From Enterobacter sp. JBIWA008 (GTDB taxonomy: Bacteria > Pseudomonadota > Gammaproteobacteria > Enterobacterales > Enterobacteriaceae), in the NCBI RefSeq assembly GCF_019968765.1, contig NZ_CP074149.1:1798001-1862000 (forward strand): a stretch of DNA of 64,000 nucleotides, written 5' to 3'. The notes below the pieces were generated by a model, which did no database searches, was not told the origin of the DNA, and saw only the letters and a list, made by a program, of their open reading frames with translations. This document shows, piece after piece, positions 11,069 through 62,810 of the stretch (position 1 is its first letter; every line of letters begins with the position of its first letter). The translations under genes were made by a program, and so were the position numbers.

Positions 11069-11101
11069 TCACGTATTCCCTGTCAATAAAGGAACTTTTG
11101 A

Positions 11102-11626
11102 ATGGCAACAGTAACACGCTGGTGGGCGCTGACGCTTATTGCCTGTAGCCTGCTCGCAGGCTGCGGTCTGACGCAGACCGTCACGGACGGTACGGTCAGC
11201 ATCACGAAATCCATCTTCTACAAGAAAATTAAAACGTTGCATCTGGATTTTACCCCGCGAACGGCCATCAACGCCGATGGCGCACAGACGCCGCTGGCGA
11301 CGATGGTGAGAGTCTATCAGCTCAGGGATCGTAAGGCGGTTGATGCCGCAAATTACCAGACGCTGCTGCGCAAGGCCGATACGGTACTTAAGGACGACGT
11401 GCTGGCATCAAAAGAGCTGCTGGTGATGCCAAAAGGCAGCATTACGCTCAATGTTCCCATGGATGAAGAAACCCAGTTCGTGGCTGTGGTGGGATTATTT
11501 AACCGCCCGGATCAGAAGGACAACCGCTGGCGCCTGGTGCTGACCCGTGACGACCTCGACCCGGATAAACCCCGTACGATTGAACTGGGTGAGGGCTGGC
11601 TCAGCCTCGTGCCGGTGAAGGAGTGA
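11102..11626 (+). CDS. tssJ: T6SS outer-membrane lipoprotein TssJ (VasD)
   Basis: The 174-residue protein has a lipoprotein signal with lipobox LLAGC, Cys at residue 21. The mature part has the TssJ beta-sandwich pattern, including the region before LLVMPKGSITLNVPMDEETQFV and a C-terminal strand (TIELGEGWLSLVPV). TssJ anchors the TssLM complex to the outer membrane. It lies between tssG and vgrG with an AAAGGAAC ribosome site before ATG 11102. Confidence 0.92.
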   Translation: MATVTRWWALTLIACSLLAGCGLTQTVTDGTVSITKSIFYKKIKTLHLDFTPRTAINADGAQTPLATMVRVYQLRDRKAVDAANYQTLLRKADTVLKDDVLASKELLVMPKGSITLNVPMDEETQFVAVVGLFNRPDQKDNRWRLVLTRDDLDPDKPRTIELGEGWLSLVPVKE

Positions 11627-11630
11627 CGTG

Positions 11631-14042
11631 ATGGATAACTGGTCAGCGCTTTTTGACGGACAGACCCGATATTTTCTGGATATCAATGACAGCTCAGTGA
11701 AGCCGGATGTCCTGCGCTTCTACGGCAGGGAAGCACTGAGCGAGCCGTTCAGATGGGACATCGAGTTCACCACGCCGCAGACGAACATTCCCCCGGAACA
11801 GGTCCTGATGAAGTATGCCTCTTTCCGGATGCGGAGCGGCAAAAGTGTTCACGGCATGGTGACCCGCCTGGAATGGCTGTCCACCTCGAAAGACCAGTCC
11901 CGCTACCGGCTCACGCTCAGCTCCCGCCTGGCGCTGCTGGGATATACCCGGCAGTGCGCCGTGTTTCAGAACCAGTCCGTCCCGGAGGTGGTGGAGCAGG
12001 TATTGCGCAAACACGGGCTGGAAGGTGCGGATTTTGAATTCAGGCTGGAGCGCACCTACCCGCCGCGTGAAATTATCACCCAGTGGCGGGAAACTGACCT
12101 GCAGTTCATTCAGCGTATATTGTCCGAGGTGGGGATTTACTGGCGCACGATGATGGACGACGTGCGCGGTCTGGATACGTACATTTTTGCCGACAGCCAG
12201 CTGAACTATCAGTTTGACGTGCAGTTGCCCTACAGCGAGCCCTCGGGTCTGTTCGACGGCGCGGCGGAATCGGTCTGGGACGTGCGGACCTGGCACAAGG
12301 TTGCCACCGGGACCGTCACCACGCGGGATTACAGCTACCGGACCGCCACCACGCCGATGGATGCCACGGTCAGCGTGCGCAGTGATGCGGTGACGACGGG
12401 CGAACACTACCGCTACAAAGAGCCGTACCGGGAAGCAGGCGACGACAGCGACCCGGAGCCGGAAACCGAGTCCGGCGCGTTTTATGCCCGGCTTCATCAC
12501 GAGCGGGAACTGAACAAATCGGCCCGCATCCACCTGTTCAGCAACGCCTCACACCTCGCGCCCGGGCAGGTTCTGGAGCCGCAGGGCGACGTCATCACGG
12601 CCCTGAAAGAGGGTGTTGTTCTCACCCTGGTGACCTTCCGGGGAGCGCGTGATTCCCGCCTGCACGTGTCGGTCTGGGGCCAGCCCTACACCGAACGATA
12701 CTGCTTCCGTCCTGTAGAAGTCCCGCGTCCTGTCATCCCGGGTACGCTTCCGGCCCGAATTGAGAGCCGGGAGAAGAACGACATATATGCCCATCTGGAC
12801 GAGCAGGGGCGCTATCGGGTGAAGCCGGACTTCGACCGGGAGGGGACGGAACCCGGTTACGGCTACCTGTGGCTGCGGATGGCAAAGCCTTATGCCGGTG
12901 AAACGCTGGGCTGGCATACGCCGCTCATCGACGGCACCGAAGTGGCGATTGCGTACAGCAACGGCGATATTGACCTGCCGTACATCGCGTATGCGCTGCA
13001 CGACTCTGAGCATCCTGACCCTGTGAACCGGGACAACCACACCTGCAACGTGCTGCGAACTCCCGCGAACAACAAGCTGCGGATGGAAGACAGGCGCGGT
13101 GAGGAGCACATCAAGCTCGCCACGGAATACGGCAGGACGCAGCTCAACAGCGGGCACCTGGTGGACAGCAAGGGGCAGCTTCGCGGTAAAGGCACAGAGC
13201 TGCGCACCGATGAACGGGGAACCCTGAGAGCCGGGAAGGGGCTGTTTGTCAGTGCGGATGCACAGGCGAAAGCGCAGGGTGATGCGCTGGACATGGATGC
13301 CGCGCTGAAGGAAATCGACAGGCTCAATCAGCAACTGCAGCAGCTGGAAATCGCCGCAGAGCAGGCGCAGGCGCTGAAAGCGGACGTGGACAGCCAGATA
13401 GCGATGTTTGAGCAGCGGCTGAAGCCGCTCAATGAGGCGCTGCTGATGTCCGCTCCGGAAGGAATGGCCCTGACCAGCGGGGAGCACCTGCAGATGACGG
13501 CCACGAAGAATGTCGCCATTAATGCGGGCGGGGATATCAGCACCGGAACAATGGGAAACATGACGGCGCTGGCAGGGGAAAAGCTGGGGCTGTTTGCGCG
13601 GGAGGGGCAGCTGAGCCTGAAGGCGTCGGAAGGACCGGTGGATGTGCAGGCGCAGAACGCCAGCCTGCGGTTGTTTGCTGAGAAGAAGCTGACGCTGAGC
13701 TCAGCGAGTGACATCTCGCTTGCCGGAAAAAAGCGTATCACGCTGATCGGTGGAGGCAGTTACCTGAAGCTTGAGGCCGGGAAGGTCGAATATGGCACGA
13801 CTGCGTCGTATTTGCGCAAAGTGAAGCGGACTATGTTTGCTGGTGCAACCGATCTACCAATTGAGTCAATGAAACAGATGACAATGATCACTCAGTATTA
13901 CGACAGAAAGTTAAATTTCTCTTCAAATGTCAATTATCGTGTTGAAACATCGGGTGGAGAGGAATTACTTTCTGGCTCCGGCACAGATGGATACATAGAC
14001 AAAAGAGACAGTGAACATGAATATTGGATATTTGTAAGTTGA
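11631..14042 (+). CDS. vgrG: T6SS spike protein VgrG (TssI)
   Basis: The protein of about 803 residues has the gp27-like N-terminal half (LSEPFRWDIEFTTP, then TLSSRLALLGYTRQCAVFQN), the gp5-like OB region (about 370-480, with LPARIESREKNDIY and GYGYLWLRMAKPYAGE), a coiled stretch near 545-580 and a C-terminal beta-helix of DUF2345 type. A GTG at 11628 is also possible as start. The final 70 residues or so, from about base 13830, switch to visibly AT-rich sequence with a different style, and the AT-rich composition continues into the next two genes. This is the usual place where VgrG proteins exchange cargo-binding tails. The two genes downstream are therefore its likely cargo and immunity. 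Confidence 0.95.
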   Translation: MDNWSALFDGQTRYFLDINDSSVKPDVLRFYGREALSEPFRWDIEFTTPQTNIPPEQVLMKYASFRMRSGKSVHGMVTRLEWLSTSKDQSRYRLTLSSRLALLGYTRQCAVFQNQSVPEVVEQVLRKHGLEGADFEFRLERTYPPREIITQWRETDLQFIQRILSEVGIYWRTMMDDVRGLDTYIFADSQLNYQFDVQLPYSEPSGLFDGAAESVWDVRTWHKVATGTVTTRDYSYRTATTPMDATVSVRSDAVTTGEHYRYKEPYREAGDDSDPEPETESGAFYARLHHERELNKSARIHLFSNASHLAPGQVLEPQGDVITALKEGVVLTLVTFRGARDSRLHVSVWGQPYTERYCFRPVEVPRPVIPGTLPARIESREKNDIYAHLDEQGRYRVKPDFDREGTEPGYGYLWLRMAKPYAGETLGWHTPLIDGTEVAIAYSNGDIDLPYIAYALHDSEHPDPVNRDNHTCNVLRTPANNKLRMEDRRGEEHIKLATEYGRTQLNSGHLVDSKGQLRGKGTELRTDERGTLRAGKGLFVSADAQAKAQGDALDMDAALKEIDRLNQQLQQLEIAAEQAQALKADVDSQIAMFEQRLKPLNEALLMSAPEGMALTSGEHLQMTATKNVAINAGGDISTGTMGNMTALAGEKLGLFAREGQLSLKASEGPVDVQAQNASLRLFAEKKLTLSSASDISLAGKKRITLIGGGSYLKLEAGKVEYGTTASYLRKVKRTMFAGATDLPIESMKQMTMITQYYDRKLNFSSNVNYRVETSGGEELLSGSGTDGYIDKRDSEHEYWIFVS

Positions 14043-33133: not shown

Positions 33134-34969
33134 ATGCGAACTGTCAAAGCCTACATCTATAGTAGGGTATCAAGCTTGCAGCAGGTTGATGCTTTTGGCT
33201 TAGATCGCCAAATTAGTACAGTATTAGACTTCCTCGAAAACGCTAAACTACCCGCTGAATTAGGGTATCAGCTCGATCCAAGCAATCATGAAGTACTGGA
33301 AAGTGATAAAGGTCTGTCAGGGTACAAAGGGCATAACTTTACCAAAGGTTCTTTAGGTCAGTTTAAGCGGCGTGTAGAGGCAGGGGAGATAACTGAAGGT
33401 TGCTTGCTAATCGAGTCTGTAGACCGCTTTTCACGTAAGCAAGGCTACGATGCTATCGATGAGTTTACTTTTTTAATCAAACGTAACATTGATATTGTAG
33501 AGGTTGAGACTGGACAAATTTACAGCTACAAACTCGACCACAAGTTATCCGCATTATCCACCAGTATCGAACGTGCTCACCAGGAATCGAAAAGAAAAGC
33601 CCGTATAAGTAAAAAATCATGGAATAGACGCAAAGAAGAATCATTGGCTACTGGTGTTGCCCTTAACAACAATACACCTGACTGGCTTTCACTTAGCCAA
33701 GATAAAAAAACATATGAGATTGATGCACAAAAGGTACAAACCATAACCAGTATTTTTGAATGGTATCGCGATGGCTATGGCGTGACTGAAATCGTCAACC
33801 GACTTAATAGTGAAGGCAATAGGTACAATGGAAGAGGCTGGAACACGGTCACAGTTTATAACAAGTTAAGAGATCGCCGTCTCAATGGTTATCTAATCGG
33901 TAAGTACAAAACAATTCCAAAGAAAGATAGTGAAAGTACTACTGACACTGAAAAGCGAATCTTAGAAAATATCAAGATTAAGAAAGAAGCAAATGATAAT
34001 GCACAGCGTATCTATCCTGTAGTGATTGATGATGAATTGTTTACAAAAATTCAATCCATGATGGATAGAAACGTATCTTCCAAAAAACAAAGAAGTACTA
34101 CGACGAAGCAAAGAAATCTCTTTAACGGTTTAACTAAGTGCCATGAGTGCGGTAGTCCTATGATCGTTCAAAGTATGTCTAATGGTGGACAGTATTTGAG
34201 GTGTTATAGACAACGTACAAAAGATGAGAAATGTAATTCAAAAATGCTTCGGTACTTTGAAAGTGAGAAGGTTCTATTAGGACACATTAAAAATCTTAAT
34301 CTTGATGAAATTTATAGTGACCGAAAACACGCCCAATCGTTAGATGTACTGAAAAGACAACTTTCAGATGTTAATGAAAAAATAGTGTTGCTTAATGATA
34401 AGGTCAAGAGTGCCAGTGATGAAGATGAACTTTTTGCTATCATGGAATTTAAAAGGAAACGTATACTAGAAAAAGATGAGTTAAATCAGAAGATAAGTTC
34501 ACTTGAAAACGAAAGCGAAATCGTACGTCTGAATTATAACTATGATATAGATAAGCTCACAGACCAGGACAACACAGCACTTAGACGTAAGGCTAATGAG
34601 CATATAGCGAAGGTTATTTCTGCAATTAAATGCCGAAGAATTGATTCGAGTTACATAGGTGCTTACTATCTTTATGATATCACCTACCATAGAGATATAC
34701 TAAAGCACATACTGATTACTGATAACAGCGGCAAGCTGATTAGTGAAATCACCATATCCGAAAAAGACAACGAACGTACTTATCTGGTAAGAGAAGAAGA
34801 TCAAACTGTATTCAAGGTAGAATCTAATGGCAATACGTGGGTAATGTATGCGAGTAGAACAAAAACAATAGATGATCTACTCTATTATATAAACACAATG
34901 ATGGTAGGAAGAGAGCCTGATGATTTCGCATACCAACTGAACGAAGACCATATAGAATGGATTGACTAA
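33134..34969 (+). CDS. Large serine recombinase (prophage integrase)
   Basis: The 611-residue protein has an N-terminal resolvase domain (YSRVSS with the catalytic Ser at residue 13, then SVDRFSRKQGYDAIDEF near residue 97). A recombinase domain follows (about 175-275, with YRDGYGVTEIVNRLNSEG), then a zinc-ribbon with paired cysteines (CHECGSPM, RCYRQ, KCNS near 335-375), then a coiled coil at about 400-460. It would integrate the phage at a short attachment site without host factors; excision needs a directionality factor that I cannot identify. AGGTG precedes the ATG. It sits at the left junction and points inward. Serine integrases are less common than tyrosine integrases in enterobacterial prophages. 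Confidence 0.95.
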   Translation: MRTVKAYIYSRVSSLQQVDAFGLDRQISTVLDFLENAKLPAELGYQLDPSNHEVLESDKGLSGYKGHNFTKGSLGQFKRRVEAGEITEGCLLIESVDRFSRKQGYDAIDEFTFLIKRNIDIVEVETGQIYSYKLDHKLSALSTSIERAHQESKRKARISKKSWNRRKEESLATGVALNNNTPDWLSLSQDKKTYEIDAQKVQTITSIFEWYRDGYGVTEIVNRLNSEGNRYNGRGWNTVTVYNKLRDRRLNGYLIGKYKTIPKKDSESTTDTEKRILENIKIKKEANDNAQRIYPVVIDDELFTKIQSMMDRNVSSKKQRSTTTKQRNLFNGLTKCHECGSPMIVQSMSNGGQYLRCYRQRTKDEKCNSKMLRYFESEKVLLGHIKNLNLDEIYSDRKHAQSLDVLKRQLSDVNEKIVLLNDKVKSASDEDELFAIMEFKRKRILEKDELNQKISSLENESEIVRLNYNYDIDKLTDQDNTALRRKANEHIAKVISAIKCRRIDSSYIGAYYLYDITYHRDILKHILITDNSGKLISEITISEKDNERTYLVREEDQTVFKVESNGNTWVMYASRTKTIDDLLYYINTMMVGREPDDFAYQLNEDHIEWID

Positions 34970-39223: not shown

Positions 39224-39916
<693 letters not shown>

Positions 39917-44853: not shown

Positions 44854-48678
<3,825 letters not shown>

Positions 48679-48993: not shown

Positions 48994-49431
48994 ATGTTCA
49001 CGGCAGACTATACAATAAGAAAGTATTTGATTAATAAATTAGCAGTAATTGTTAATCTACAATATCCATCAAAAGCAACGGTAGATGATACCACTATGGT
49101 TTACATTGGTGATTCTTCAGTACAACGTTCACAGATAGCCAAAGCAAATCAAATTGTAAACAATCAAATCGTACCTTCAACTATTAGAAATTTATGTGAA
49201 TTTCGAGTTGAGTTTGTAGCTGTCGGACAATCATTTAAAAGTGCTTCAGATGAAATAGAAAAGATTCTTGAAGCACTTTATACATCTGGTTTCTTTGATG
49301 AACTAAACCAGCAACTTCCAATGCCATTATTCAATATCCGTATTGAAGATAGCCTAATGACTACTCAAGCCGAAGCAACGGAAACCGCTTATGTACACAC
49401 GCAAACTCTATCTTTTAGCTATGGGGAATAA
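48994..49431 (+). CDS. Tail completion/terminator protein (gpU/Z-like)
   Basis: The 145-residue alpha/beta protein has the layout of tail terminator proteins, with a helix near residues 85-110 (SFKSASDEIEKILEALYTSG) and a final strand YVHTQTLSFSYGE. It starts one base after the connector gene. By order it is gpU or gpZ. It would cap the tail tube at the head end. Confidence 0.6.
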   Translation: MFTADYTIRKYLINKLAVIVNLQYPSKATVDDTTMVYIGDSSVQRSQIAKANQIVNNQIVPSTIRNLCEFRVEFVAVGQSFKSASDEIEKILEALYTSGFFDELNQQLPMPLFNIRIEDSLMTTQAEATETAYVHTQTLSFSYGE

Positions 49432-49433
49432 TT

Positions 49434-51125
49434 ATGGCTCAAACATTTTTAGGGAATCTAACTACAGTATGGATTAATACCGATACAACCAACGTTGATC
49501 CAAATGCCCGTACTTTTGTTCAAGTAGAAAACCTTTCAGCATTTCCAAGTATTAGTGAATCAACTTCTGTTTCAACTGTAGAAACATATGATAGTACTTA
49601 CACCTCTAAAGTAGCGGGTGATAGTTCATATGGTGATATGACTATTTCAGTTAACTATATTCCAGGTGAAAACGCCGTACTTGATTCTGTTGTTGATTCT
49701 CAGCAATTAGTACAGGTCAAGGTAGAAATGCTTGATGAAGGTTTAAACGATACTACCATAAACTATGTGCTTTACAACGGTTACTTATCCAGCGTTTCCG
49801 ATACGTCAGATATGGATCAGGTTGTTACCCGCTCTTACGTATTCACACCAGAAAGCCAGGTATCAGCAGGTATTCTTGATGAATCAGTAGTTGAACTCTA
49901 TCGCGGTGATTGGGGTGTTGGTTCGAACGGTAACGAGTTTCCAAGCTATCAAGGCCGTGACGGTAACTCATTCGTTAAGATCGCAGCAGCCAACGCACCA
50001 ACAGGTGTTGATATGTTGGGTATCACTAACCTTGATGGTTCTAACGGTACTCAATTGGTAATGAGCAAAACCGGTACGCCAGTACTCAATTTTCGTAACT
50101 TCTCAACAGCAAGTAACGGGGCATGGTACAAGGTCTACACCAGTGCAGATAAACCAACGTTAACAGAACTTGGTGCGGCAGCCGCTACCGATCTCAGTAA
50201 CTACGTACTAATCACACGTACTGTCAATGGTAAAGCACTTACAGCCAACATTACTTTGGTAGCAGCAGATATTAGTGATGTTTACTCTAAGACCTACATT
50301 GATTCAAACGTAGTACCGAAAGTGTTTCAATTAAACGGACACGCATTATCAGGAACGGCGTTGAACTTAGTAGCGGCAGATATACTTGATGTGTATTCAC
50401 AGACACAGGTTAACAATACCTTTGTAGCTAAAACGGTTACTGTTAACGGTTTGCCTTTGAGTAGCAATATCACACTAACGGCAGCACAACTTACTGATAT
50501 GGCATCTTTAGCATATAGTAATAGTACTTATGTGCCTAAGACGTTCTTAATCAATAACAAGCCATTATCTGGTACTAACATTCAATTGGTAGCAGCAGAT
50601 ATTAGTGATGTGTATTCCCGTACTGAAAGCAACGGATTGTTCGCGTTACGTATCACTACAATTAACGGTTATGCTTTAAACAGTAACGTAACCTTGAACT
50701 ATAACGATGTTGGAACGTATTCAAAAGCACAAATTGATGCCAAAGATGCCGCACTTCAAGCGAACATTGATACCAAAGTAACTATCACTCAAGACCTTCT
50801 AACAATAAATAACGTAGAAGATACATTAGAACTTGATATGTCTGATGGTAAACGTGTTTTCAAAGCAACTCTAACAGCACCAGTAACACAACTCAGTGTT
50901 ATAAATGCGAGTGGAAGTAATTTAAACAGTCAAACTATCACGATGTTATTAAAGCAAGGAACAGGGGCAAATAAAATTTCATGGCCTTCTAATGTTAAAT
51001 GGTCTTATGGGCGTGAACCAGTATTAACCTTTACGAAAGATTCAATTGATGTAATTCAATTCTTGTCAGTAGATGGAGGAAGTACCTGGTACGGCTCCTT
51101 ACTAATGGCGGATCTACAAGAATGA
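49434..51125 (+). CDS. Tail-tube domain fused to fibre repeats
   Basis: Residues 1-145 of this 563-residue protein are homologous to the tail-tube protein at 54001: both share FVQVENLSAFPS / FTVVEEVGAFPS, a QLVQVKVEM / ILIQVKVTY strand, NGYLSSVS / NGYVSSDV, and DQVVTRSYVF / DGVVTRDFVV. Residues about 260-440 contain at least five repeats like VNGKALTANITLVAADISDV with YSKT, the collar repeat of phage tail fibres. A beta-rich C-terminal domain follows. A tube subunit carrying a fibre would decorate the tail. This gene and the next lie between tail terminator and true tail tube, outside the lambda plan. Confidence 0.7.
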   Translation: MAQTFLGNLTTVWINTDTTNVDPNARTFVQVENLSAFPSISESTSVSTVETYDSTYTSKVAGDSSYGDMTISVNYIPGENAVLDSVVDSQQLVQVKVEMLDEGLNDTTINYVLYNGYLSSVSDTSDMDQVVTRSYVFTPESQVSAGILDESVVELYRGDWGVGSNGNEFPSYQGRDGNSFVKIAAANAPTGVDMLGITNLDGSNGTQLVMSKTGTPVLNFRNFSTASNGAWYKVYTSADKPTLTELGAAAATDLSNYVLITRTVNGKALTANITLVAADISDVYSKTYIDSNVVPKVFQLNGHALSGTALNLVAADILDVYSQTQVNNTFVAKTVTVNGLPLSSNITLTAAQLTDMASLAYSNSTYVPKTFLINNKPLSGTNIQLVAADISDVYSRTESNGLFALRITTINGYALNSNVTLNYNDVGTYSKAQIDAKDAALQANIDTKVTITQDLLTINNVEDTLELDMSDGKRVFKATLTAPVTQLSVINASGSNLNSQTITMLLKQGTGANKISWPSNVKWSYGREPVLTFTKDSIDVIQFLSVDGGSTWYGSLLMADLQE

Positions 51126-53944
51126 TAAGAAAACAAAATATCAGCAATGCCCAACAGATGATTGAAGGGCATTGGGAATTTTTAGAACGTAATACGGGTT
51201 TAGTTAATGATAATAAAACAGATCACTATGTACTAAACCCACAAAACGTTATATGTAACAACAGGCATTTTATAGCGGAAACTGGATGGGAAGCACAACC
51301 GGACGGTGACGCAACCACAGAAGGACAATCCTTAGCAATTCTTGGTGCTATCTATGCGTATCAGGCAACCAAAGAACCGTACTACCTACAGCGAGCTAAA
51401 GACTTTTTCAACGCCTATCACATGGCGTTCTTCCGTGGTGTAGCGTTCCCCGATCCACCTGATGGTTCATTGCGTTGTAACTGGATCTGTAATGGCAAGG
51501 CTCCAGTACTGGCACATTACCCATTAGATCCAGAGTATCCAACTCACGGCGGGTTCAAGGGCGTATTGTTCACATGGACGAACGGACAAACACAGATACC
51601 TCATGGTTCACCTAACTACGGTGAATACCTCGATGCTGTATGGTTTGCCTTTCCCGAAAGAGCGGGGCTTGGTTGGAATCAGGTAAACGCAACAGCCTAC
51701 GCATGGTTAGCTAATGAAGATTCCATAGATTGGGATACTAAAGCACCCACGTATGATGTTGATTGGATTGTTGACCGTACAGGCCGTAAGGTAGATAGCA
51801 ATGGTGATGTACTGGCAGAAGGACTAACAAGCCAGATCGGTACAGTCCAGCTCAAGGACACGTCTATAAACGGTAATTACCGATTCAACTACGCCACAAA
51901 GAACCCTGTATCAGAGGGTGGTTATCTGATGGGGCGTAATGAACGTTGGCACAACAGGCCAGTAAACGTACCCATTGATAACTACGGTTCACTTGATTTC
52001 GCTGATAACGCATCAGATGCTGAATTGTGGTTCTGTCAGGCGGCAAAGCTACTATGGGATATCACAGGCGAGCGTATCTATTACTTAGCATGGCAGAACT
52101 CACTACTTACATGTATTGGATATTCCGATATTGATAAATTTGATATGTTCTTTCGTAAAAGTACTCTTGCTATAACGCCTTTCACTGATGGCATTTCATA
52201 TGATTATTTCTATCCGAGTAATCAAGTAGCATCATATTCACGTGATTCAGATGGCTATATAGTCATTAATCAAAGTGCCTCAGCACAAACAACGCTTGAA
52301 CAACAATCTATATGGTTCAAATTTAATAATAGTTCAACTTTCCATGTTGAATATAGTGGTGTTGATACTACTGGCAAACCATTAAGCCTTGCTGTAGCAA
52401 TGACAGTTAATAAAACTAAAACAGAAGATGGTGCTATAAGATACCGTTGCGGTTTACCCATTACCAATACTGACAACAGTATTATATCTATGGATATACC
52501 GATGAATCATTTTACACGTATTGCTAAACCAGATGGTGGACAGTACTTAACAGCAGATATGCGTATGATTTCCGATTATGGGGATAACACAGTAACTACC
52601 TTACAATATGTATCTGGTATCGCTGGAACGTACTATGACAACGTGATTTCTACTACTATGGATTCTGACGGTAGTTCTACAGTTGGTTTCTGGATCTTTG
52701 ATGATGAAACACAGGATTTAAACAGCTTCACATACAGAACATATGCTGATGATTTTAATATCCGTATCGTTGATGATCTTGGTTGGCGTTGGTGGGCTAT
52801 GCTACCAGCAAGTAACGGGGCATGGATAACACAAACGTTTAATGTACTGGATTTTAAATTGAGTTCTTATCAACCGGATCATGAAGAAGGTGATGAACAA
52901 CCAGGACAACCAACACTAACAGGACGTACAGAGTTTACACTATTACTTGATACCGATCCGGTTGATGGTGTCTCAGGGCGTATTGACTGGTATTGTGTTA
53001 ACGATTTACCAGCACTCTATAACGATGGTGGTACAGGTGATTATTCAGTGTTAGTAAGTTTAACATTCAATGATAGTACTGGTAATGGATATACAGCACG
53101 TTTAGGTGATTGTGTAATTCGTAATTACATGCTTGATAGCCTTTCATATACACCAGGACTAATACCATTCAGTAACATCACAGATCCATATGCTCAATTG
53201 TATTCCGGTTGGCGTGGATTACCATACCCTGGGTATCAATTGCCCGCGATTTGGTGCTTTAAGGGTACGACAATTGATCAAACCAGACTAAATAATAGTA
53301 TTAAGTTCTTATGTGATGCTCAGGACTGGTTTACTAATAAATTCCATCCTACTTTACCTGGTCCGTGTGCTCAGGCTTATGTATGGAACCGTCAGGACGC
53401 TTTAGCATATGCCCCTGATGGTAAACCGGATCAATTCATTATGCAGCACTGGTATGAAGAAGCATGGTCAGGTTATGAACCTCGTGCGTTCTTTGCAGGT
53501 TGTGATGTAGTTCATGAGCTATATCAACGTGGTGATTATGCTATTCCACAGAACATTATCACTTACAGTAAGAACTGGATGAATTACTTAAAGTGGTTTA
53601 TGAAAAATAATGATGGCCACGCACCAACACGATTTAAAGATGATGGTGAAGTAATTTATGATGGGTTTACAGGTCATATGTCTGGTTTGTGGCTTGCTGG
53701 TGCTTCAATGATGGCAATAGCAGGTTATCCAGATCACGAATTACTTGATTTACTATTCGCGGAAATTCAACAGAACTATAACATAGTTTCAGCTAATCAC
53801 GTAATGAATGGTGGATGGTCATCAGCTATCAGAAGTGGAACACCTACAACACCAGAGAATAATTCAATGTTCTTTGGATTCTATACAGGTGAACTACTAA
53901 GAGGTTTAGCACTTTACATGAAGTACTACAACCAACATATATAA
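51122..53944 (+). CDS. Large toroid-like tail protein, candidate polysaccharide-degrading enzyme
   Basis: The 940-residue protein has N- and C-terminal parts rich in paired helices typical of alpha/alpha toroid glycosidases: TTEGQSLAILGAIYAYQATK near residue 65, NASDAELWFCQAAKLLWDIT near residue 298, NSIKFLCDAQDWFTN near residue 725, and MMAIAGYPDHELLDLLFAEI near residue 863. A beta-rich insert of about 330 residues lies between. Trp and acidic residues are abundant (FIMQHWYEEAWSGYEP). No catalytic residues can be assigned. It overlaps the fibre-tube gene by four bases, so it is probably a partner on the tail surface, perhaps a capsule depolymerase. Confidence 0.55.
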   Translation: MIRKQNISNAQQMIEGHWEFLERNTGLVNDNKTDHYVLNPQNVICNNRHFIAETGWEAQPDGDATTEGQSLAILGAIYAYQATKEPYYLQRAKDFFNAYHMAFFRGVAFPDPPDGSLRCNWICNGKAPVLAHYPLDPEYPTHGGFKGVLFTWTNGQTQIPHGSPNYGEYLDAVWFAFPERAGLGWNQVNATAYAWLANEDSIDWDTKAPTYDVDWIVDRTGRKVDSNGDVLAEGLTSQIGTVQLKDTSINGNYRFNYATKNPVSEGGYLMGRNERWHNRPVNVPIDNYGSLDFADNASDAELWFCQAAKLLWDITGERIYYLAWQNSLLTCIGYSDIDKFDMFFRKSTLAITPFTDGISYDYFYPSNQVASYSRDSDGYIVINQSASAQTTLEQQSIWFKFNNSSTFHVEYSGVDTTGKPLSLAVAMTVNKTKTEDGAIRYRCGLPITNTDNSIISMDIPMNHFTRIAKPDGGQYLTADMRMISDYGDNTVTTLQYVSGIAGTYYDNVISTTMDSDGSSTVGFWIFDDETQDLNSFTYRTYADDFNIRIVDDLGWRWWAMLPASNGAWITQTFNVLDFKLSSYQPDHEEGDEQPGQPTLTGRTEFTLLLDTDPVDGVSGRIDWYCVNDLPALYNDGGTGDYSVLVSLTFNDSTGNGYTARLGDCVIRNYMLDSLSYTPGLIPFSNITDPYAQLYSGWRGLPYPGYQLPAIWCFKGTTIDQTRLNNSIKFLCDAQDWFTNKFHPTLPGPCAQAYVWNRQDALAYAPDGKPDQFIMQHWYEEAWSGYEPRAFFAGCDVVHELYQRGDYAIPQNIITYSKNWMNYLKWFMKNNDGHAPTRFKDDGEVIYDGFTGHMSGLWLAGASMMAIAGYPDHELLDLLFAEIQQNYNIVSANHVMNGGWSSAIRSGTPTTPENNSMFFGFYTGELLRGLALYMKYYNQHI

Positions 53945-54000: not shown

Positions 54001-54474
54001 ATGGCTTTTAATTCTATTTTTGTAGGCAATAATGTAAAAGTTGAAATCGCTAATGCTCCAGCGGGTGGCGGTCAGGCAACTACCTTTACTGTTGTTGAAG
54101 AAGTTGGTGCTTTTCCATCAGCGGCAGGTGCGGAATCTAACGTTGTTAGTGTGAACACTTTCGGTCAACAGTACGCTAAGAAATTGCTTGGTTCTCGTTC
54201 AGTACCGGATCTAACTCTAACTGTTAACTGGAAACCAGGTGCGACAGGTCAAGAAATGCTTGCGGCAGCCGCAGCAGCACAAATACTAATCCAGGTTAAA
54301 GTAACCTATTTCCAGAATATTGATGATCAAGATGGTGCCGCTTATTACAGCATCGTAAACGGTTATGTAAGTTCTGATGTAGTTAATGGTGATTTTGATG
54401 GTGTAGTAACTCGTGATTTCGTTGTTTCCGTTACTGGTGCTCCAATTGCGGTTGGTGAAGTTACTGGTGCGTAA
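54001..54474 (+). CDS. Major tail tube protein (gpV-like)
   Basis: The 157-residue protein starts MAFNSIFVGNNVKVEIANAP after AAAGGA; a TTG two codons upstream is rejected. It is a mainly beta protein with a C-terminal strand DGVVTRDFVVSVTG. Position just before the tail chaperone pair is that of gpV. It lacks the Ig-like extension of lambda gpV. Homology to the N-terminus of the fibre-tube gene shows a past duplication. Confidence 0.8.
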   Translation: MAFNSIFVGNNVKVEIANAPAGGGQATTFTVVEEVGAFPSAAGAESNVVSVNTFGQQYAKKLLGSRSVPDLTLTVNWKPGATGQEMLAAAAAAQILIQVKVTYFQNIDDQDGAAYYSIVNGYVSSDVVNGDFDGVVTRDFVVSVTGAPIAVGEVTGA

Positions 54475-54840: not shown

Positions 54841-55173
54841 TTGTATAACAGCGGGTGTAGTGTGGATGATCTCTACACTATGCCCATTTTGCTTTTCTTC
54901 TACCTATTAGTTTTCAAAGAATCGGTTGATCCTGATTCATCACAAATTGAACAAATCAGGCATACAGAACTACTACAGGCAATATGGTTAAGTACTGGCA
55001 ATATCAAGAAAGAAGATATACCGAAATTTAGTATCTATGAACTCGATTCATTGAACATTATTTCAAATAAAACCTTAGCTGAACAACAAGCAGAGAGGGA
55101 GAAGAAGATCGTAGAACAACAAAAAGCAAACATGCTTAATTGGATGGGAGTAAAGCCTAATGGCAAACAATAA
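54841..55173 (+). CDS. Tail chaperone T part, probably made by -1 frameshift
   Basis: This frame (YNSGCSVDDLYTMPILLFFY onwards) has only a TTG at 54841 as a start and no ribosome site. It is open upstream to 54787, overlapping the G gene end. The best reading is a G-T fusion of about 219 residues made by frameshift at 54796-54802. The T part ends with a charged helix (EQQAEREKKIVEQQKANM) and overlaps the tape measure start by 14 bases. In lambda, the T domain holds the tape measure during tail assembly. Confidence 0.65.
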   Translation: MYNSGCSVDDLYTMPILLFFYLLVFKESVDPDSSQIEQIRHTELLQAIWLSTGNIKKEDIPKFSIYELDSLNIISNKTLAEQQAEREKKIVEQQKANMLNWMGVKPNGKQ

Positions 55174-57622
55174 TAAACAATCAATGATATTTGAAATCAC
55201 AGGTGATGAATCTGGATTACAAAAATCATTAAAAAACGCAGCAAATGATATAGGGGATTTTGGGGATCGTGCTGGCGGTGTGTTCGGTAGTTTCAATACC
55301 GGACTATCAACCACGGCTAAAGCTATGTCTGGTTTCGCTGGTGCGGTAGGGGTGGCAGGTATCGCCATTGCCGCCACATTAGCCAACGTTCAAGCTCAAT
55401 CAGAAAAGGCGTTTGAAGTCTTTCAGGCAGCATCACTATCACAAACTGGCATAGTACAGATCCAACAGGCGGCTAATATGTTTGCGGGTGTTGGTCTGAC
55501 TATGGATCAAGTAGCCGATCAGATGAAAGATGCTAAGGATAAGTTAGGCGATGCGATCACTAATAACGCTGGTTCAATGCTTACTGATGTAATTCAACCA
55601 TTGAAGTTGAATATGTTTGAGTTACAGAAAGCAGCAGAAAACGGTGAAGATATTATTGCTAAGATTTACTATCAAGCTAAACAAATGGGCTTTAGTCAGG
55701 CTCAGATTGTACAGATGATGGAAACCGTAGCTAACGATGCTACTAAACGCATGACTGTATATAGAGAATTTAGTACTGAACAAGAGTACCAAAATAGCCT
55801 TGCTAATGAAACTATACAGTTAACAGCAGAGCAATCACGACAATTTGAAGAATATAGAACGGCAACTAATAATCTATCAAGGGCGTGGGATGCGTGGCGA
55901 AATTCAACACTTGCCCCTGTTGCTAAAAGCCTTGCTGATATTCTTGATCTAATGACTAAGATACTTAACAGTAAGCCAGTGGCAGCAGCCGCAGCAGCTA
56001 CCAGTAAGCAGGGTATACAGGCAGTACAGGAATATCAAAAACAGTACCAACAGCAGATACAGAAAAACTCTTCTATCTATGGTGCTCAGATGGTAGAGGA
56101 ACAGCAGAAGCAACAAGAAGCCAATAACAAAACCTTTGAGAATCTTTTAGCTAATCTTGATGCCGCAAATAATCTACTTGATAAACAGAAAGAAGAATAT
56201 AATAAAGGATCAGATAGAAGTGTTATTGATACAGCGTTGAAACCTTATCTTTCAGCTAAGCAGAAGACACAAGCACAGATTGATACACTTGATGCTACTC
56301 ACAAGCAACTACGAGCAACAATTAAAGATTCTTTAGTACGTGCTTATAAGGGTGATGAAGCGGCAATGAATGCCGATTTAGCTAAACTTGATGAAGGTTA
56401 TAAAGCTAACCGTGAGAAGTTAGTGAAAAGCCTAACAGCCGATGAAGATAAAGCACGTGAAGATAAAGCTAAGAAAGATGAAGCAGCAGCCAAGAAAGCA
56501 CAAGCCGCACAAGATAAACTTAATGAACAAACTAAAAGAGCAAAAGCACTATTAGAACAAACCCTATCACAGATCGGTACTAACGAAGCTCAGATACGTA
56601 TTACTCGTTTTAACTATGAACAAGATGAAATTGAAACGCGTATCAGTACAGCAGGTAAATTAGCTGGTAAGAGTGAAACTGAAATTACAGCAATGTTAGA
56701 TCAGCAATATAAAAGTCGTGCGACTAAGTACAAAACTATGGTTGATGAAATGCTTGCTGAAACAGACCGTTTAAAACAAGCACAAAACATTGCCGCAATT
56801 GCCAGTGATCCGAATGCCACACCAGAGGCTAAAGCCAAAGCAGCAGCAGCGGGTAAGACATGGACAGGTGACACAGCAGGTCAGGGATTAGGGTATACAA
56901 ACCCATTAGACTTCTCACCAGATCCAACGAAAGTACAGCAAGTAAACACTGAACAGCAAGAGAACCAGGATGGGGCTAAAGCTCTATACGATGCCAAAGT
57001 AATTGGGTTCCAGGAGTACCAGGATCAGCTAACAGCGATTCAGGCCAACGCCGATATGAAACGTGGTCGATTAACCGCAGACGCACTAACCAGTACTTTA
57101 GGTATGTGGCAAGCTGGGGCAGGTGATGTAGGAACTATCATGGCTGGGGTTTTCGGTGAGTCATCAGCAGCGGCTAAGGCAGCTTTTGCCGTAAGTAAAG
57201 GTATTGCTATTGCTCAGGCAGTGATCAACATCCAGCAGGGCATATCCGAAGCTATCAAACTTGGCTGGCCTATGGGGATCGCAGCAGGTCTACAGGTAGC
57301 AGCTCAAGGTGCGTCCATTGTCCGTACTATTAAAGGTACAGCTATCCAGGGGCAAGCCCATGATGGTTGGGATTCACTACCAAGTACTGGTACATACAAT
57401 CTTGAAAAAGGTGAACGTGTAGTAGGTAAATCACTAAACCAGGATTTAACAAAATACTTGAGTAATCAGGATGGTAGTAAATCAGGTGATATTAAGATTG
57501 ACGCACCGTTAATTATTAATAGTAATGGTCAAATCTCAGATTCAGATTTCCAAAAGATGTGTGATAAACACGCTGATACTATAGTTCAGGCAACACGTAA
57601 ATCTCAGAAGAATAATGTATAA
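55160..57622 (+). CDS. Tape measure protein
   Basis: The 820-residue protein is the longest helical protein of the tail module. It has a small N-terminal domain, a hydrophobic Gly/Ala stretch (GFAGAVGVAGIAIAATLANV near residue 57), long coiled regions (about 320-600, KAREDKAKKDEAAAKKAQAA) and a C-terminal helical domain with AAKAAFAVSKGIAIAQAVIN. It sets tail length and is ejected ahead of DNA. Its position after G/T is as in lambda H. Confidence 0.92.
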   Translation: MANNNKQSMIFEITGDESGLQKSLKNAANDIGDFGDRAGGVFGSFNTGLSTTAKAMSGFAGAVGVAGIAIAATLANVQAQSEKAFEVFQAASLSQTGIVQIQQAANMFAGVGLTMDQVADQMKDAKDKLGDAITNNAGSMLTDVIQPLKLNMFELQKAAENGEDIIAKIYYQAKQMGFSQAQIVQMMETVANDATKRMTVYREFSTEQEYQNSLANETIQLTAEQSRQFEEYRTATNNLSRAWDAWRNSTLAPVAKSLADILDLMTKILNSKPVAAAAAATSKQGIQAVQEYQKQYQQQIQKNSSIYGAQMVEEQQKQQEANNKTFENLLANLDAANNLLDKQKEEYNKGSDRSVIDTALKPYLSAKQKTQAQIDTLDATHKQLRATIKDSLVRAYKGDEAAMNADLAKLDEGYKANREKLVKSLTADEDKAREDKAKKDEAAAKKAQAAQDKLNEQTKRAKALLEQTLSQIGTNEAQIRITRFNYEQDEIETRISTAGKLAGKSETEITAMLDQQYKSRATKYKTMVDEMLAETDRLKQAQNIAAIASDPNATPEAKAKAAAAGKTWTGDTAGQGLGYTNPLDFSPDPTKVQQVNTEQQENQDGAKALYDAKVIGFQEYQDQLTAIQANADMKRGRLTADALTSTLGMWQAGAGDVGTIMAGVFGESSAAAKAAFAVSKGIAIAQAVINIQQGISEAIKLGWPMGIAAGLQVAAQGASIVRTIKGTAIQGQAHDGWDSLPSTGTYNLEKGERVVGKSLNQDLTKYLSNQDGSKSGDIKIDAPLIINSNGQISDSDFQKMCDKHADTIVQATRKSQKNNV

Positions 57623-59273: not shown

Positions 59274-62200
59274 ATGGCAGTAGCAGCAGTTGCCGTAGCT
59301 ATTATCGCAGGGGCATCAGCAGCGGCAGCAGCATACGCAGCAGGTTTAGCTTTAGCAGCAGTAGTAGCTATAGGTATTGGTACAGCAGCACTATCTTACA
59401 TTAGTTCATCACAGATGATGAATGTAGGCCAAATGGGGGTAACGTATCCGAGTACGGGTAGTAACAATGCCCGATCAACATCACCAAGTACTGGCATACC
59501 GATTTCATACGGCGGTTCTAACCGCAACGCAACAGAGGTTGCTTATAACAAGTTAGGCTCTATTGTCGTATGGCAGAACGTCTATAAAGGTACTTCAAAC
59601 CAGTTATGTACGGTTCACGCGATTAGTATCGGTGAAATCGGGCAAGTACCAGGGGAACAATCACAAGGCGTAATCAAGCAGATCTATTTTGATAATGCTC
59701 CGGTACTCATGGATGGTGCGTACATTACCACAGAGGGGATCGTACCTACCTCAATGATGATTGAGAAGTACCGCAAATACTTACAGATTGAGGTACGTTT
59801 CGGTAAGCCGTCCTACGGTGGTTCTATGACGCTTGCCCGTCAATATGGCGGTAGTCAATGGACTGACAACATGCGTGGTGATGGTCTTGTACAGATCTGT
59901 ACCGTAATCAAGAAAACCAACGATTCATTGATTGATGGGATTCTAACGAACCAGAACTATACATTATCGGTAGAAATGCGTGGACGTATGATCTATGACT
60001 TAACTGATAATGTACGTAAACCAAGTTCAAACCCACCAAGCCAACTATATGACTTTATCACTAATACAGAATTTGGATTTGGGCTTGATCCTAATGATAT
60101 TGATATTACCAGTTTCCGTAATATGGCAAACTATTGTGCTCAGAATCATTTCTATTCCAATGGTAATATTCAATATGATAAATCCTTTAAGGAAAACATT
60201 GAAAATATTCTACAAACATTTGGTGGTGTACTTTATGAATCAAACGGTAAGTACTATCTAACCGTTGATGCTCCAGATATTCCAAGTGTACATTTTGATG
60301 AAACAAATATTATTGGCAGTGTGAATATCACAACGGGTTCTAAGTCTGACTATTTTAATACAATGGACAGTACCTATACAAATCCAGGCAATGACTATTC
60401 ACAAGATATTATCCGTTATCCAAGTGATGCCATTAGTAACGCATCCATTGCTAAAGATGGTTATATTATCAAAAAGGATTTAAACTATCTTTGGGTACAG
60501 GATAAGAATCAGCTTGCTATTCTTAGTAACATTGAATTACTAAAATCTAAGTACATTACGAACACAATTACTTTCAATACCTATGTGACAGATATGAAAG
60601 TATATGATGTGTTTAAACTTGATTTTAAAGAAGCTGGATTTAGTAATAAAAAGTACAGATGTATTCAACGTACTGTACCAATGACCGTTGATAAAGCAGG
60701 CATTGTCCAGATCACCGCGATTTCATATGATGATGGTATATATCAAGGAAAAGATCCGGGACAATTCCCACAGGATGGATTAACCAATCTACCTAATCCA
60801 ACATACGTAGAACCGCCAAGTAGCCTACAGGCTCAACGTTTAGGGGCAACGGCATCAGGTAACACCGTTCTATTAACATGGGATTTATCACAGGATACAA
60901 CTGTACGTGGTTATAAGATTCGCTATAAACGCAGTGATTCCAGTGTTTGGATCAGCATTGGTAACGTAGGGCAGTACTCTACTAGTTTTGAGATACTAAA
61001 TCTTCTATATGGTGTTCAGTACGATTTTGCTATTGAGGCGTATAACACATTAGGTTATTCATCGGAATTAGTAGCTATCTATAATCAAACACCACAAGTT
61101 ATATTCGCATTACCGAAGATTACTAACCTTGATATGGTGAACGATGATGTAGGTTTAAACCAGACATATGCTCAAGATTTTATTTTACGTTGGGATGATC
61201 AGGCTAACATAGCCGTAAATGGTAAAACATTTGCTGATTTCTTCAAACATTATGAAATTCGTGTGTATGACCGATACAGGAACTACATCACATCGTATTA
61301 CACCACTACAAGCAACTGGACGTACTCATATTCAATGAATACCAGTGATGGCCTTAGCCGTTACCGTGTGTTTGGGATCATCGCTCATGGTTGGGGTACT
61401 GGTATCTATAGCGAAGAAGTTCAGATTGAAGTTAGTAACCCACAGCACCCACAGTTGTTAGGGATCAACCTTAAGAGTGGTTATGATTCCGTGTTTATCG
61501 ACTGGACAGAATCAAACGTACCGGATTATGCGGGTGTTGTTCTTCAAATCGCACTTGATGAAGGGTTTAGCTCAGGGTCGAAGTACTTTAGCAGTACAAA
61601 TCGATATTCAGCATCGTTTGGTATTGAAGATGGTTCATGGTTCGCTCGTGTAGCAGCCTATGACGTGTTCGGACAGGATGAATTGGTATGGTCGCCTACT
61701 ATCGGTTTTAACCAGAATACGAAGGTTCCGTACAGCAAATTAAACGAAGATGTTATTGATGGCCTACTTAACAGTGATACGGCTACTGGCATTGTTGAGA
61801 AACAGATCGTAGATGAACTTGGTTCACGCTGGCAGGTTCAGGTATCAAATAATGGTAACGTTACTGGTATTGCCCTAGCAGCAGATGAGAAAACATCAGT
61901 GTTTACAGTGATGGCAGATCGCTTTTCAATTATCAGTACTGACTCAGCTAAACAAAGTGATAAGGTATATCCGTTTGTAGTTCAGAATGGTAAGACTTTT
62001 ATTAACTCAGCAGTCATAGCCACGGCGAGTATTAATGAGGCGATGATAAATGATCTAAGCGTTTCACGAGCTAAAATTCAGAACGCCGCAATCGACAATA
62101 CGAAAATTGCCAATGCCGCGATACGTAACGCCCACATCATGGACGGCGTGATCGACTCAGCGAAGATTAGCCAACAGATACAATCCAGTAATTGGGATGG

Positions 62201-62810
62201 TACTAATGGTTGGGCTATCAATAAAAATGGTAATGCCTGGTTTGGTAACGTATCTGTACGTGGAAATATACAGGCAACATCTGGTGTACTCAACAACGTT
62301 ACTATCAATGAAAACTGTAACATTCTTGGTACTCTTAGTGCCGCACGTATTGTAGGTGATATTTGTCGTCCACAATCAACGGGCATTTCATCAGTACCGT
62401 TTATCTTTGGTTCACATACTGTTTCAGGTGGTCAGGCCGCTAATGATCCAGTTGCTTACCAGCACTATATAGCGTTACGTATTCGTGGTGAAGATTTTGA
62501 TCGTATTCTTGATAGTAATATGACAATTACACTTACTTCATATGAACGTCAGTACTTCTATATTCGTATGGGTGGTGATGGTATCGGTATGACTAACTTA
62601 GAGTATGTTGATGCTGGTAATGAAGGACATAACACACCATTTACATTCCCAATCAATGGTATCTTTGTTCCTCGTGTTGGTCGTGGTAATTGGAATTATA
62701 TCTATGTTATGTGTACTACATCACGTAGTGGTATAGCATCTTTAAATGTACCTTCATTACTAAATTCTTTCCTATATCGTGCGGGGGATCAACCTTTATA
62801 TAATGCGTAA
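59274..62810 (+). CDS. Tail-tip receptor-binding protein (gpJ-like)
   Basis: The 1178-residue protein has a hydrophobic Ala-rich N-terminus (residues 1-45), then J-type tip domains (YDFITNTEFGFGLDPNDIDI near residue 265). At least one fibronectin type III domain follows (TVLLTWDLSQDTTVRGYKIR near residue 525). Near the C-terminus lies the J/DUF1983 pattern NNGNVTGIALAADEKTSVFT, then repeats of AxIxNAxIxN type (KIQNAAIDNTKIANAAIRN). The end is probably the host-recognition part. It starts two bases after the K-like gene and closes the tail operon. Confidence 0.9.
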   Translation: MAVAAVAVAIIAGASAAAAAYAAGLALAAVVAIGIGTAALSYISSSQMMNVGQMGVTYPSTGSNNARSTSPSTGIPISYGGSNRNATEVAYNKLGSIVVWQNVYKGTSNQLCTVHAISIGEIGQVPGEQSQGVIKQIYFDNAPVLMDGAYITTEGIVPTSMMIEKYRKYLQIEVRFGKPSYGGSMTLARQYGGSQWTDNMRGDGLVQICTVIKKTNDSLIDGILTNQNYTLSVEMRGRMIYDLTDNVRKPSSNPPSQLYDFITNTEFGFGLDPNDIDITSFRNMANYCAQNHFYSNGNIQYDKSFKENIENILQTFGGVLYESNGKYYLTVDAPDIPSVHFDETNIIGSVNITTGSKSDYFNTMDSTYTNPGNDYSQDIIRYPSDAISNASIAKDGYIIKKDLNYLWVQDKNQLAILSNIELLKSKYITNTITFNTYVTDMKVYDVFKLDFKEAGFSNKKYRCIQRTVPMTVDKAGIVQITAISYDDGIYQGKDPGQFPQDGLTNLPNPTYVEPPSSLQAQRLGATASGNTVLLTWDLSQDTTVRGYKIRYKRSDSSVWISIGNVGQYSTSFEILNLLYGVQYDFAIEAYNTLGYSSELVAIYNQTPQVIFALPKITNLDMVNDDVGLNQTYAQDFILRWDDQANIAVNGKTFADFFKHYEIRVYDRYRNYITSYYTTTSNWTYSYSMNTSDGLSRYRVFGIIAHGWGTGIYSEEVQIEVSNPQHPQLLGINLKSGYDSVFIDWTESNVPDYAGVVLQIALDEGFSSGSKYFSSTNRYSASFGIEDGSWFARVAAYDVFGQDELVWSPTIGFNQNTKVPYSKLNEDVIDGLLNSDTATGIVEKQIVDELGSRWQVQVSNNGNVTGIALAADEKTSVFTVMADRFSIISTDSAKQSDKVYPFVVQNGKTFINSAVIATASINEAMINDLSVSRAKIQNAAIDNTKIANAAIRNAHIMDGVIDSAKISQQIQSSNWDGTNGWAINKNGNAWFGNVSVRGNIQATSGVLNNVTINENCNILGTLSAARIVGDICRPQSTGISSVPFIFGSHTVSGGQAANDPVAYQHYIALRIRGEDFDRILDSNMTITLTSYERQYFYIRMGGDGIGMTNLEYVDAGNEGHNTPFTFPINGIFVPRVGRGNWNYIYVMCTTSRSGIASLNVPSLLNSFLYRAGDQPLYNA

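What the first reader, a model, noticed from the sequence alone, without database searches (positions are those of the whole stretch)
49434..53944. Second tail-tube subunit fused to fibre repeats, paired with a 940-residue toroid-like protein
A two-gene cassette sits between tail terminator and tail tube. Its first protein has an N-terminal copy of the tail-tube protein encoded at 54001, then at least five fibre collar repeats. Its second looks like an alpha/alpha toroid carbohydrate enzyme with a beta insert. This suggests a siphovirus whose tail shaft, not only its tip, is decorated with adhesin and possibly capsule-degrading enzyme. I know of Ig-type decorations on tail tubes but not of this arrangement.
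Basis: partly seen in the sequence, partly recalled or inferred. Interest (0 to 1): 0.78.

Follow-up and report, generated by a model that had tools for sequence, protein, structure and literature searches.

The report
Side fibre fused to tail-tube subunit
A dormant virus in an enterobacterium encodes a second copy of the protein that builds its tail tube, but with a long fibre grown onto it, and next to it a large protein shaped like a sugar-cutting enzyme; this looks like a recurring, apparently undescribed way of rooting host-grabbing fibres in the tail.

Summary

It is not a one-off. Fusion precedes TTP in all 41 of 51 related contigs that hold both. Of 295 host-family genomes 11 match; 10 show the domain heading a long fibre beside a plain TTP, the eleventh apparently, split between contigs. 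Eight of the 11 carry other fibre ends. Fused and plain TTPs form two groups (100/99): an old duplication. The toroid is encoded in 503 phage records.

Best reading: a tube paralogue forms one or a few rings that anchor a side fibre tipped by a glycosidase-like protein. Whether these rings lie along the shaft, as first proposed, or at its end is untested, as are activity and substrate. I found no description of the fusion.

The parts
49434..51125 (+). Fusion gene: TTP paralogue + side fibre, 563 aa
   Evidence: ORF; PHROG 158 at residues 1-143, fibre PHROGs 9017/7760 at 408-559; present in 48 of 51 contigs
49434..49883 (+). Tail-tube-fold domain, residues 1-150 (proposed virion anchor)
   Evidence: separate group from plain TTPs; dN/dS 0.14-0.39
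49884..50213 (+). Linker domain, residues 151-260, conserved RGDWGVGSNG-type motif
   Evidence: alignment A2; recognisable in S74-type fusions L085, L087, L088
50223..50768 (+). Five fibre repeats of 36-37 residues, overlapping the start of a predicted helix 431-458
   Evidence: helix from the low-confidence model
50796..51119 (+). C-terminal cap domain, residues 455-562, homologous to the gene upstream of the toroid in phages
   Evidence: 43-45% identity in most listed rows; bas62_0024
51122..53944 (+). 940-aa (alpha/alpha)6-toroid tail protein, PHROG 2871, glycoside-hydrolase-like
51320..51322 (+). Codon of Glu67 (motif ATTEGQS), candidate general acid
   Evidence: E in 109 of 109 rows with a residue there, 12 of 121 gapped; pairs with GH8 SEGQ motif
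52016..52018 (+). Codon of Asp299 (motif NASDAE), candidate second active-site acid
   Evidence: D in 119 of 119 rows with a residue there, 2 of 121 gapped; pairs with GH8 NSASDAD motif
54001..54474 (+). Plain tail tube protein, 157 aa, too short for an extra Ig domain
48994..49431 (+). Gene in tail-terminator position, 145 aa
   Evidence: position and conservation only; no PHROG hit
55160..57622 (+). Tape measure protein
   Evidence: PHROG 13674 E 1e-49
59274..62810 (+). Central tail fibre J; no further fibre gene recognised from here to the right end of the prophage
   Evidence: downstream ORFs of 120 aa or more read by eye, not run against families

Best explanation
The prophage encodes a dedicated tail-tube paralogue whose tube-fold domain is built into the tube wall as one or a few special rings, most likely at an end of the tube. 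Its C-terminus leaves the ring where lambda gpV carries its Ig decoration (gpV layout recalled) and continues as a presumably trimeric side fibre. The fibre's C-terminal cap holds the 940-residue toroid, which binds and probably cleaves a surface polysaccharide of Enterobacterales, bringing J to its receptor. Shown here: sequence family, predicted folds, conserved gene order, old duplication, purifying selection, swapping of fibre ends. Inferred: incorporation in the tube, trimer state, cap-toroid docking, hydrolysis. If six tube domains make a ring and three chains make a fibre, one ring carries two fibres.
For: Tube family and fold. The plain TTP has 157 aa, like the gpV chains modelled without the Ig domain (153-156 residues against 243-245 with it). 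Fusion precedes TTP in all 41 of 51 contigs that hold both and in the 11 matching genomes of 295, one of them inferred from two contig ends. Fused and plain TTPs form two groups, support 100/99; both split into toroid-type and other prophages, strongly for plain TTPs (100/99 and 99/97), less so for fused ones (100/98 and 88/72). dN/dS 0.03-0.39 over fusion parts, toroid and TTP against 10 loci that I chose (TTP: 9). Fibre ends are swapped: S74 chaperone in 6 of 8 genome fusions and in 94 of the 120 listed of 201 database proteins (my count); S74 domains are recalled to serve trimeric fibres. No other fibre gene recognised between J and the host genes (by eye). In 295 genomes the toroid occurs only beside a fusion, 3 of 3. 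Cap and toroid matches are adjacent in the 36 of 36 phage records listed in both (60 rows shown of 503 and 504; many are close relatives).
Against: No virion data. The fused domain is less conserved than the plain TTP (mean identity 37.2 against 52.3%, TTP higher in 90 of 91 pairs), which fits a minor part but also a domain no longer in the tube. The 563-aa model is poor outside residues 1-149 (mean pLDDT 51). Among 50,697 phage records only one, DCP80, gave a match to the tube domain of a fusion at the limits used, and that record looks chimeric; I met no fusion in a characterised phage. At order level only the window's own genome of 394 had a fusion. Catalysis: no Pfam hit, the GH8 alignment score is reached by 5 of 200 shuffles, and the GH8 base aligns with Ala792.
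Confidence: 0.66

Rival explanations
1. Shaft decoration: fused subunits are scattered through many rings, so the whole shaft is studded with enzyme-tipped fibres.
For: Tube-fold domain conserved; gene lies directly before TTP on the same strand; adhesin or carbohydrate-binding decorations on tube subunits are known (PMC9863714, passages).
Against: Fused domain diverges faster than TTP, unlike a subunit packed in every ring; a trimeric fibre and six-fold ring make free mixing awkward (inference); in T5-like DT57C the TTP-fold paralogue forms a single ring at the fibre site (PMC10713586, passages).
Confidence: 0.2
2. The tube-like domain is only a handle: it no longer enters the tube but docks on the outside of the neck or tip, as other fibre N-termini do.
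For: Faster divergence of the fused domain; in DT57C fibre N-termini are held by a collar rather than being tube subunits (PMC10713586, passages).
Confidence: 0.15
3. The toroid is a non-catalytic lectin-like receptor binder, not an enzyme.
For: No Pfam match; GH8 motif comparison weak, 5 of 200 shuffles as high, and the GH8 base aspartate aligns with Ala792.
Confidence: 0.3
4. A decaying fusion or assembly artefact without function.
For: Almost absent from phage records.
Against: 48 of 51 contigs, 11 genomes and 201 database proteins found from a different fusion; dN/dS well below 1.
Confidence: 0.02

Closest known systems
Lambda gpV, tail tube protein with C-terminal Ig decoration
   Same: Tube-fold N-terminal domain; among the best fold matches of the fused domain; extra part follows on the C-terminal side
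   Different: gpV is the main tube subunit and its extra part is one Ig domain (recalled; also a reference title); here a separate paralogue carries a fibre and the main TTP has no extension
Major tail proteins with adhesin or CBM extensions (PMC9863714, passages)
   Same: Tube subunit extended by a glycan-binding part
   Different: Described there as adhesins or carbohydrate-binding modules on the main tube protein, not as fibres with an enzyme partner
TTMP/LtfC/LtfA ring of T5-like phage DT57C (PMC10713586, passages)
   Same: A TTP-fold protein ring marks the side-fibre site
   Different: There the fibre is a separate protein held by a collar; here it is one chain with the tube-type domain
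Lateral tail fibre module of Justusliebigvirus, Vequintavirinae and others, e.g. bas62_0024/0025 of JohannJBalmer
   Same: Toroid at 30-57% identity; cap in the gene next to it at 43-45%
   Different: JohannJBalmer is a contractile-tail phage (tail sheath gene) and its cap gene is only 157 aa, without a tube domain
GH126/GH8/GH48 glycoside hydrolases (CPF_2247, PssZ, BcsZ)
   Same: (alpha/alpha)6 barrel; candidate Glu and Asp motifs at matching places (GH126 residues from PMC7479077 passages)
   Different: No significant sequence membership; two large beta inserts; phage tail location
T6SS evolved Hcp proteins (Hcp with C-terminal effector; recalled) and Hcp2-Hcp3 mixed hexamer 9vne
   Same: Tube-superfamily subunit with an added C-terminal part, and rings of mixed paralogues
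   Different: Cargo travels with the tube in secretion (recalled); here the fibre must lie outside

Membership tests
Tail tube protein (PHROG 158, lambda gpV type) | Profile match of the N-terminal domain | tested here: met
   PHROG 158 E 8.4e-20; Pfam Phage_TTP_12 17.3 bits, below its cut-off of 26.1
Tail tube protein (PHROG 158, lambda gpV type) | Tube fold | tested here: met
Tail tube protein (PHROG 158, lambda gpV type) | Forms stacked rings in the virion | not testable with these tools
   needs multimer prediction or imaging
Side tail fibre | Fibre repeats and fibre-family C-terminus | tested here: met
   five repeats; PHROG 9017 E 2e-29
Side tail fibre | Trimer | not testable with these tools
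   inferred from S74 and gp37_trimer domains in related fusions
Lateral tail fibre toroid (PHROG 2871) | Full-length profile match and adjacent cap gene | tested here: met
   1219 bits over residues 4-938; adjacency in 36 of 36 records listed in both
Glycoside hydrolases of GH126 / clan GH-M (GH8, GH48) | (alpha/alpha)6 barrel | tested here: met
Glycoside hydrolases of GH126 / clan GH-M (GH8, GH48) | Significant family sequence match | tested here: not met
   no Pfam family at E up to 1; profile against 10 GH8 sequences reached by 5 of 200 shuffles
Glycoside hydrolases of GH126 / clan GH-M (GH8, GH48) | Catalytic residues in place | tested here: inconclusive
   Glu67 and Asp299 invariant and motif-aligned; GH8 base aligns with Ala792
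Glycoside hydrolases of GH126 / clan GH-M (GH8, GH48) | Hydrolytic activity | not testable with these tools
   needs assay
gpV-type Ig-decorated tube | C-terminal Ig domain on the main TTP | tested here: not met
   main TTP is 157 aa and ends with the tube domain

The most novel reading that the evidence does not exclude
A separate class of siphovirus tail in which duplicated tube subunits are the covalent root of the side fibres, carried in several rings along the shaft, so that the tube itself presents swappable adhesin or glycosidase fibres; in this branch the tip enzyme attacks the ManNAc-containing NGR glycan that Vequintavirinae, phi92-like phages and N4 use.
Probability: 0.12. Interest if true: 0.85.

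Novelty: new variant of a known kind. Interest (0 to 1): 0.66.

Why it matters
How side fibres are fixed to non-contractile tails is known for few phages. A tube paralogue fused to the fibre would be a simple anchor that can be read from sequence, and it would make about 200 database proteins (201 found), now called tail fiber domain-containing, S74 family peptidase or hypothetical where they have a name, readable as tube-anchored receptor-binding proteins of prophages in E. coli, Salmonella, Klebsiella, Enterobacter and others. It also points to a large uncharacterised glycosidase-like family in some 500 phage records, including groups reported to depend on the NGR glycan.

Tried and rejected
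ECA as target: I first took the enterobacterial common antigen from the BASEL paper (PMC8594841, passages), but PMC8669472 (passages) reports that the wecB-dependent phages need wecB and are hampered without nfrB, but do not need wecA, so NGR is the better candidate. It remains a guess here: those phages also share a deacetylase, and Vibrio and Aeromonas phages carry toroid relatives.

Full-length Foldseek of the 940-aa model gave mostly uninformative multidomain hits, apart from carbohydrate-binding module matches such as CBM11 6r31; VIA-align gave the toroid. Sequence search of solved structures with the toroid found nothing useful (best E 2.1, best E 0.032, a GH76 fragment), with the 563-aa protein nothing. 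Toroid against GH8: two attempts used wrong frames, corrected in 107; one GH8 sequence (L130) was in the wrong orientation and was dropped. I first thought Asp759 or residue 786 might be the base; the alignment puts Ala792 there. The 563-aa model beyond residue 149 is not interpretable; the third Foldseek job was not used. Codon-adaptation estimates of copy number were considered and not run. E. coli genomes: no match for the L025-type gene, 1 of 5,426 genomes for the window gene. Plasmids: 3 records match only the fibre end, none the L102 fusion start. Order-level search: 4 of 394 genomes matched, only the window's own being a fusion; a class-level search for the fusion did not complete.

Literature: no description of a tube-fibre fusion appeared in the listings of searches; the library lacks most subscription papers. 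PMC13123978 and PMC10721106 were looked at by passages only; in PMC12312913 the terms asked for were not found.
Full report
Observation. The window holds a prophage whose left marker is a serine recombinase at 33134 and whose right end lies before host genes beginning near window position 68357, an mdtG-like transporter by my reading. Its tail module contains, in order, a gene in terminator position (48994), the 563-aa fusion (49434), the 940-aa protein (51122), the plain tail tube protein (54001), a weakly matching chaperone gene, tape measure, distal tail protein and J. The fusion's first 143 residues match PHROG 158, the family that also takes the plain TTP, and its last 150 match tail-fibre families; the 940-aa protein matches PHROG 2871 over residues 4-938. 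Five fibre repeats of 36-37 residues lie between. Reading the downstream ORFs of 120 aa or more by eye, I recognised no second fibre gene.

Conservation. Scans of viral contigs with the toroid and with the N-terminal domain, plus one genome contig, gave 51 contigs besides the window. A fusion is present in 48; the other 3 (L018, L033, L039) start inside or after it. The plain TTP is present in 44, fusion and TTP together in 41, and the toroid in 45 by the ORF test (some cut at contig ends, and in L069 broken into two frames) plus L072 and L077, cut at a contig end. Near-duplicates were not removed (L002 and L031 give identical values). Three contigs (L085, L087, L088) have the tube domain on a 995-1013-aa fibre and no toroid; for L085 an S74 chaperone end was confirmed. 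In 295 genomes of the host family 11 match. In 10 the domain lies in open frames of 566-1188 aa; in the eleventh the gene seems split across two contig ends. All 11 have a plain TTP; only 3 carry the toroid. Of the eight others six end in S74, one in Phage_tail_C_2, one in neither. At order level, 394 genomes, only the window's own showed a fusion. A database search from one S74-type fusion gave 201 proteins; the 120 listed are 559-1303 aa, 94 with S74 and 8 with Phage_tail_C_2 (my count); names, where given, are mostly 'tail fiber domain-containing', 'pyocin knob domain-containing S74 family peptidase' or 'hypothetical', from Enterobacter, E. coli, Salmonella, Klebsiella, Raoultella, Erwinia, Rahnella and others. 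PHROG 158 itself runs beyond the tube domain into such fibres, so that family probably mixes both.

History. In a tree of 14 fused domains and 15 plain TTPs each set is one side of a 100/99 branch, and both divide into toroid-type and other prophages, strongly for plain TTPs, with 100/98 and 88/72 for the fused ones: one old duplication, then joint inheritance. The fused domain is less conserved (37.2 against 52.3% mean identity, TTP higher in 90 of 91 pairs) but constrained: dN/dS 0.14-0.39 for the tube domain, 0.05-0.13 and 0.05-0.17 for middle and end, 0.04-0.10 for the toroid (10 loci that I chose), 0.03-0.13 for TTP (9 of them).

The toroid elsewhere. 503 of 50,697 phage records encode a relative, 499 over at least 80% of its length, all under 60% identity; they range from Seunavirus- and Justusliebigvirus-like to rV5-like, Vibrio, Erwinia and Aeromonas phages (some genus names recalled). 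In Justusliebigvirus JohannJBalmer it is annotated 'lateral tail fiber protein with several glycosidase domains' and follows a 157-aa protein that matches the fusion's C-terminal cap. In the 36 of 36 records listed in both and the cap match ends 14-23 bases before the toroid match, same strand. So cap and toroid travel together; the tube domain is what is special here. One metagenomic protein, P0118, joins the toroid to domains named for a non-contractile tail sheath.

Activity. Glu67 in ATTEGQS and Asp299 in NASDAE, each at the start of a barrel helix, are invariant wherever a residue is present (109 of 109 and 119 of 119, 121 rows). The host's own GH8 enzyme (BcsZ type) carries TTSEGQS and NSASDAD, and an unforced but weak alignment pairs both motifs. 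Against 10 GH8 sequences the score is matched by 5 of 200 column shuffles, and the GH8 base falls on Ala792, so this is suggestive only. In GH126 the corresponding residues are Glu84 and Asp136, and the GH8 base place is a leucine (PMC7479077 and PMC13363691, passages). GH126 PssZ degrades a ManNAc-containing exopolysaccharide, and Vequintavirinae, phi92-like phages and N4 are reported to depend on NGR, proposed to contain ManNAc (PMC8669472, passages). That makes NGR a testable candidate substrate, no more.

Mechanism. In gpV the extra domain follows the tube domain at about residue 156 (recalled, in line with chain lengths); in the fusion the fibre follows there. In DT57C a TTP-fold protein ring marks the side-fibre site, with separate fibre chains held by a collar (PMC10713586, passages). 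I therefore favour one or a few special rings over scattered decoration, at about 3 to 1. Six tube domains and three-chain fibres would give two fibres per ring; this is inference.

Verdict. I found no account of it in searches.

Noticed in passing
L115 and L133 (PQ671644, Escherichia phage DCP80): The record looks chimeric: about 22 kb of siphovirus-type head and tail genes with a TTP-fibre fusion (698 aa) and a 745-aa second fibre protein, then T4-like genes with motA and two rIIA entries.
   Followed up: partly
P0118 (metagenomic protein, 1557 aa): Toroid fused to NCTSP_N and TIM-barrel domains of a non-contractile tail sheath protein.
   Followed up: no
L022, fusion gene 6313-8004: Mosaic: end nearly as in the window (dS 0.058) while the middle differs strongly (dS 1.088), so fibre parts recombine.
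   Followed up: no
L069, toroid region 9689-12508: The toroid reading frame is broken into two pieces (69 and 697 aa) although the region matches over its whole length.
   Followed up: no
window 46846-48678: Capsid protein fused to a prohead protease (Peptidase_S78 + Phage_capsid).
   Followed up: no
window 33134-34969: Large serine recombinase as likely integrase; prophage sits near mdoG and a glycosyltransferase gene in mdoH position.
   Followed up: no
   Followed up: no
window 39224-39910: Membrane protein of the 8xMP family inside the prophage.
   Followed up: no
L118 and L119 (host chromosome): Two GH8 genes about 10 kb apart in the host.
   Followed up: no
records MG065639, MG065645, MG065656, MG065689: Records named Campylobacter phages carry the toroid at the same identity as E. 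coli Justusliebigvirus records; possibly mislabelled or from an E. coli host.
   Followed up: no
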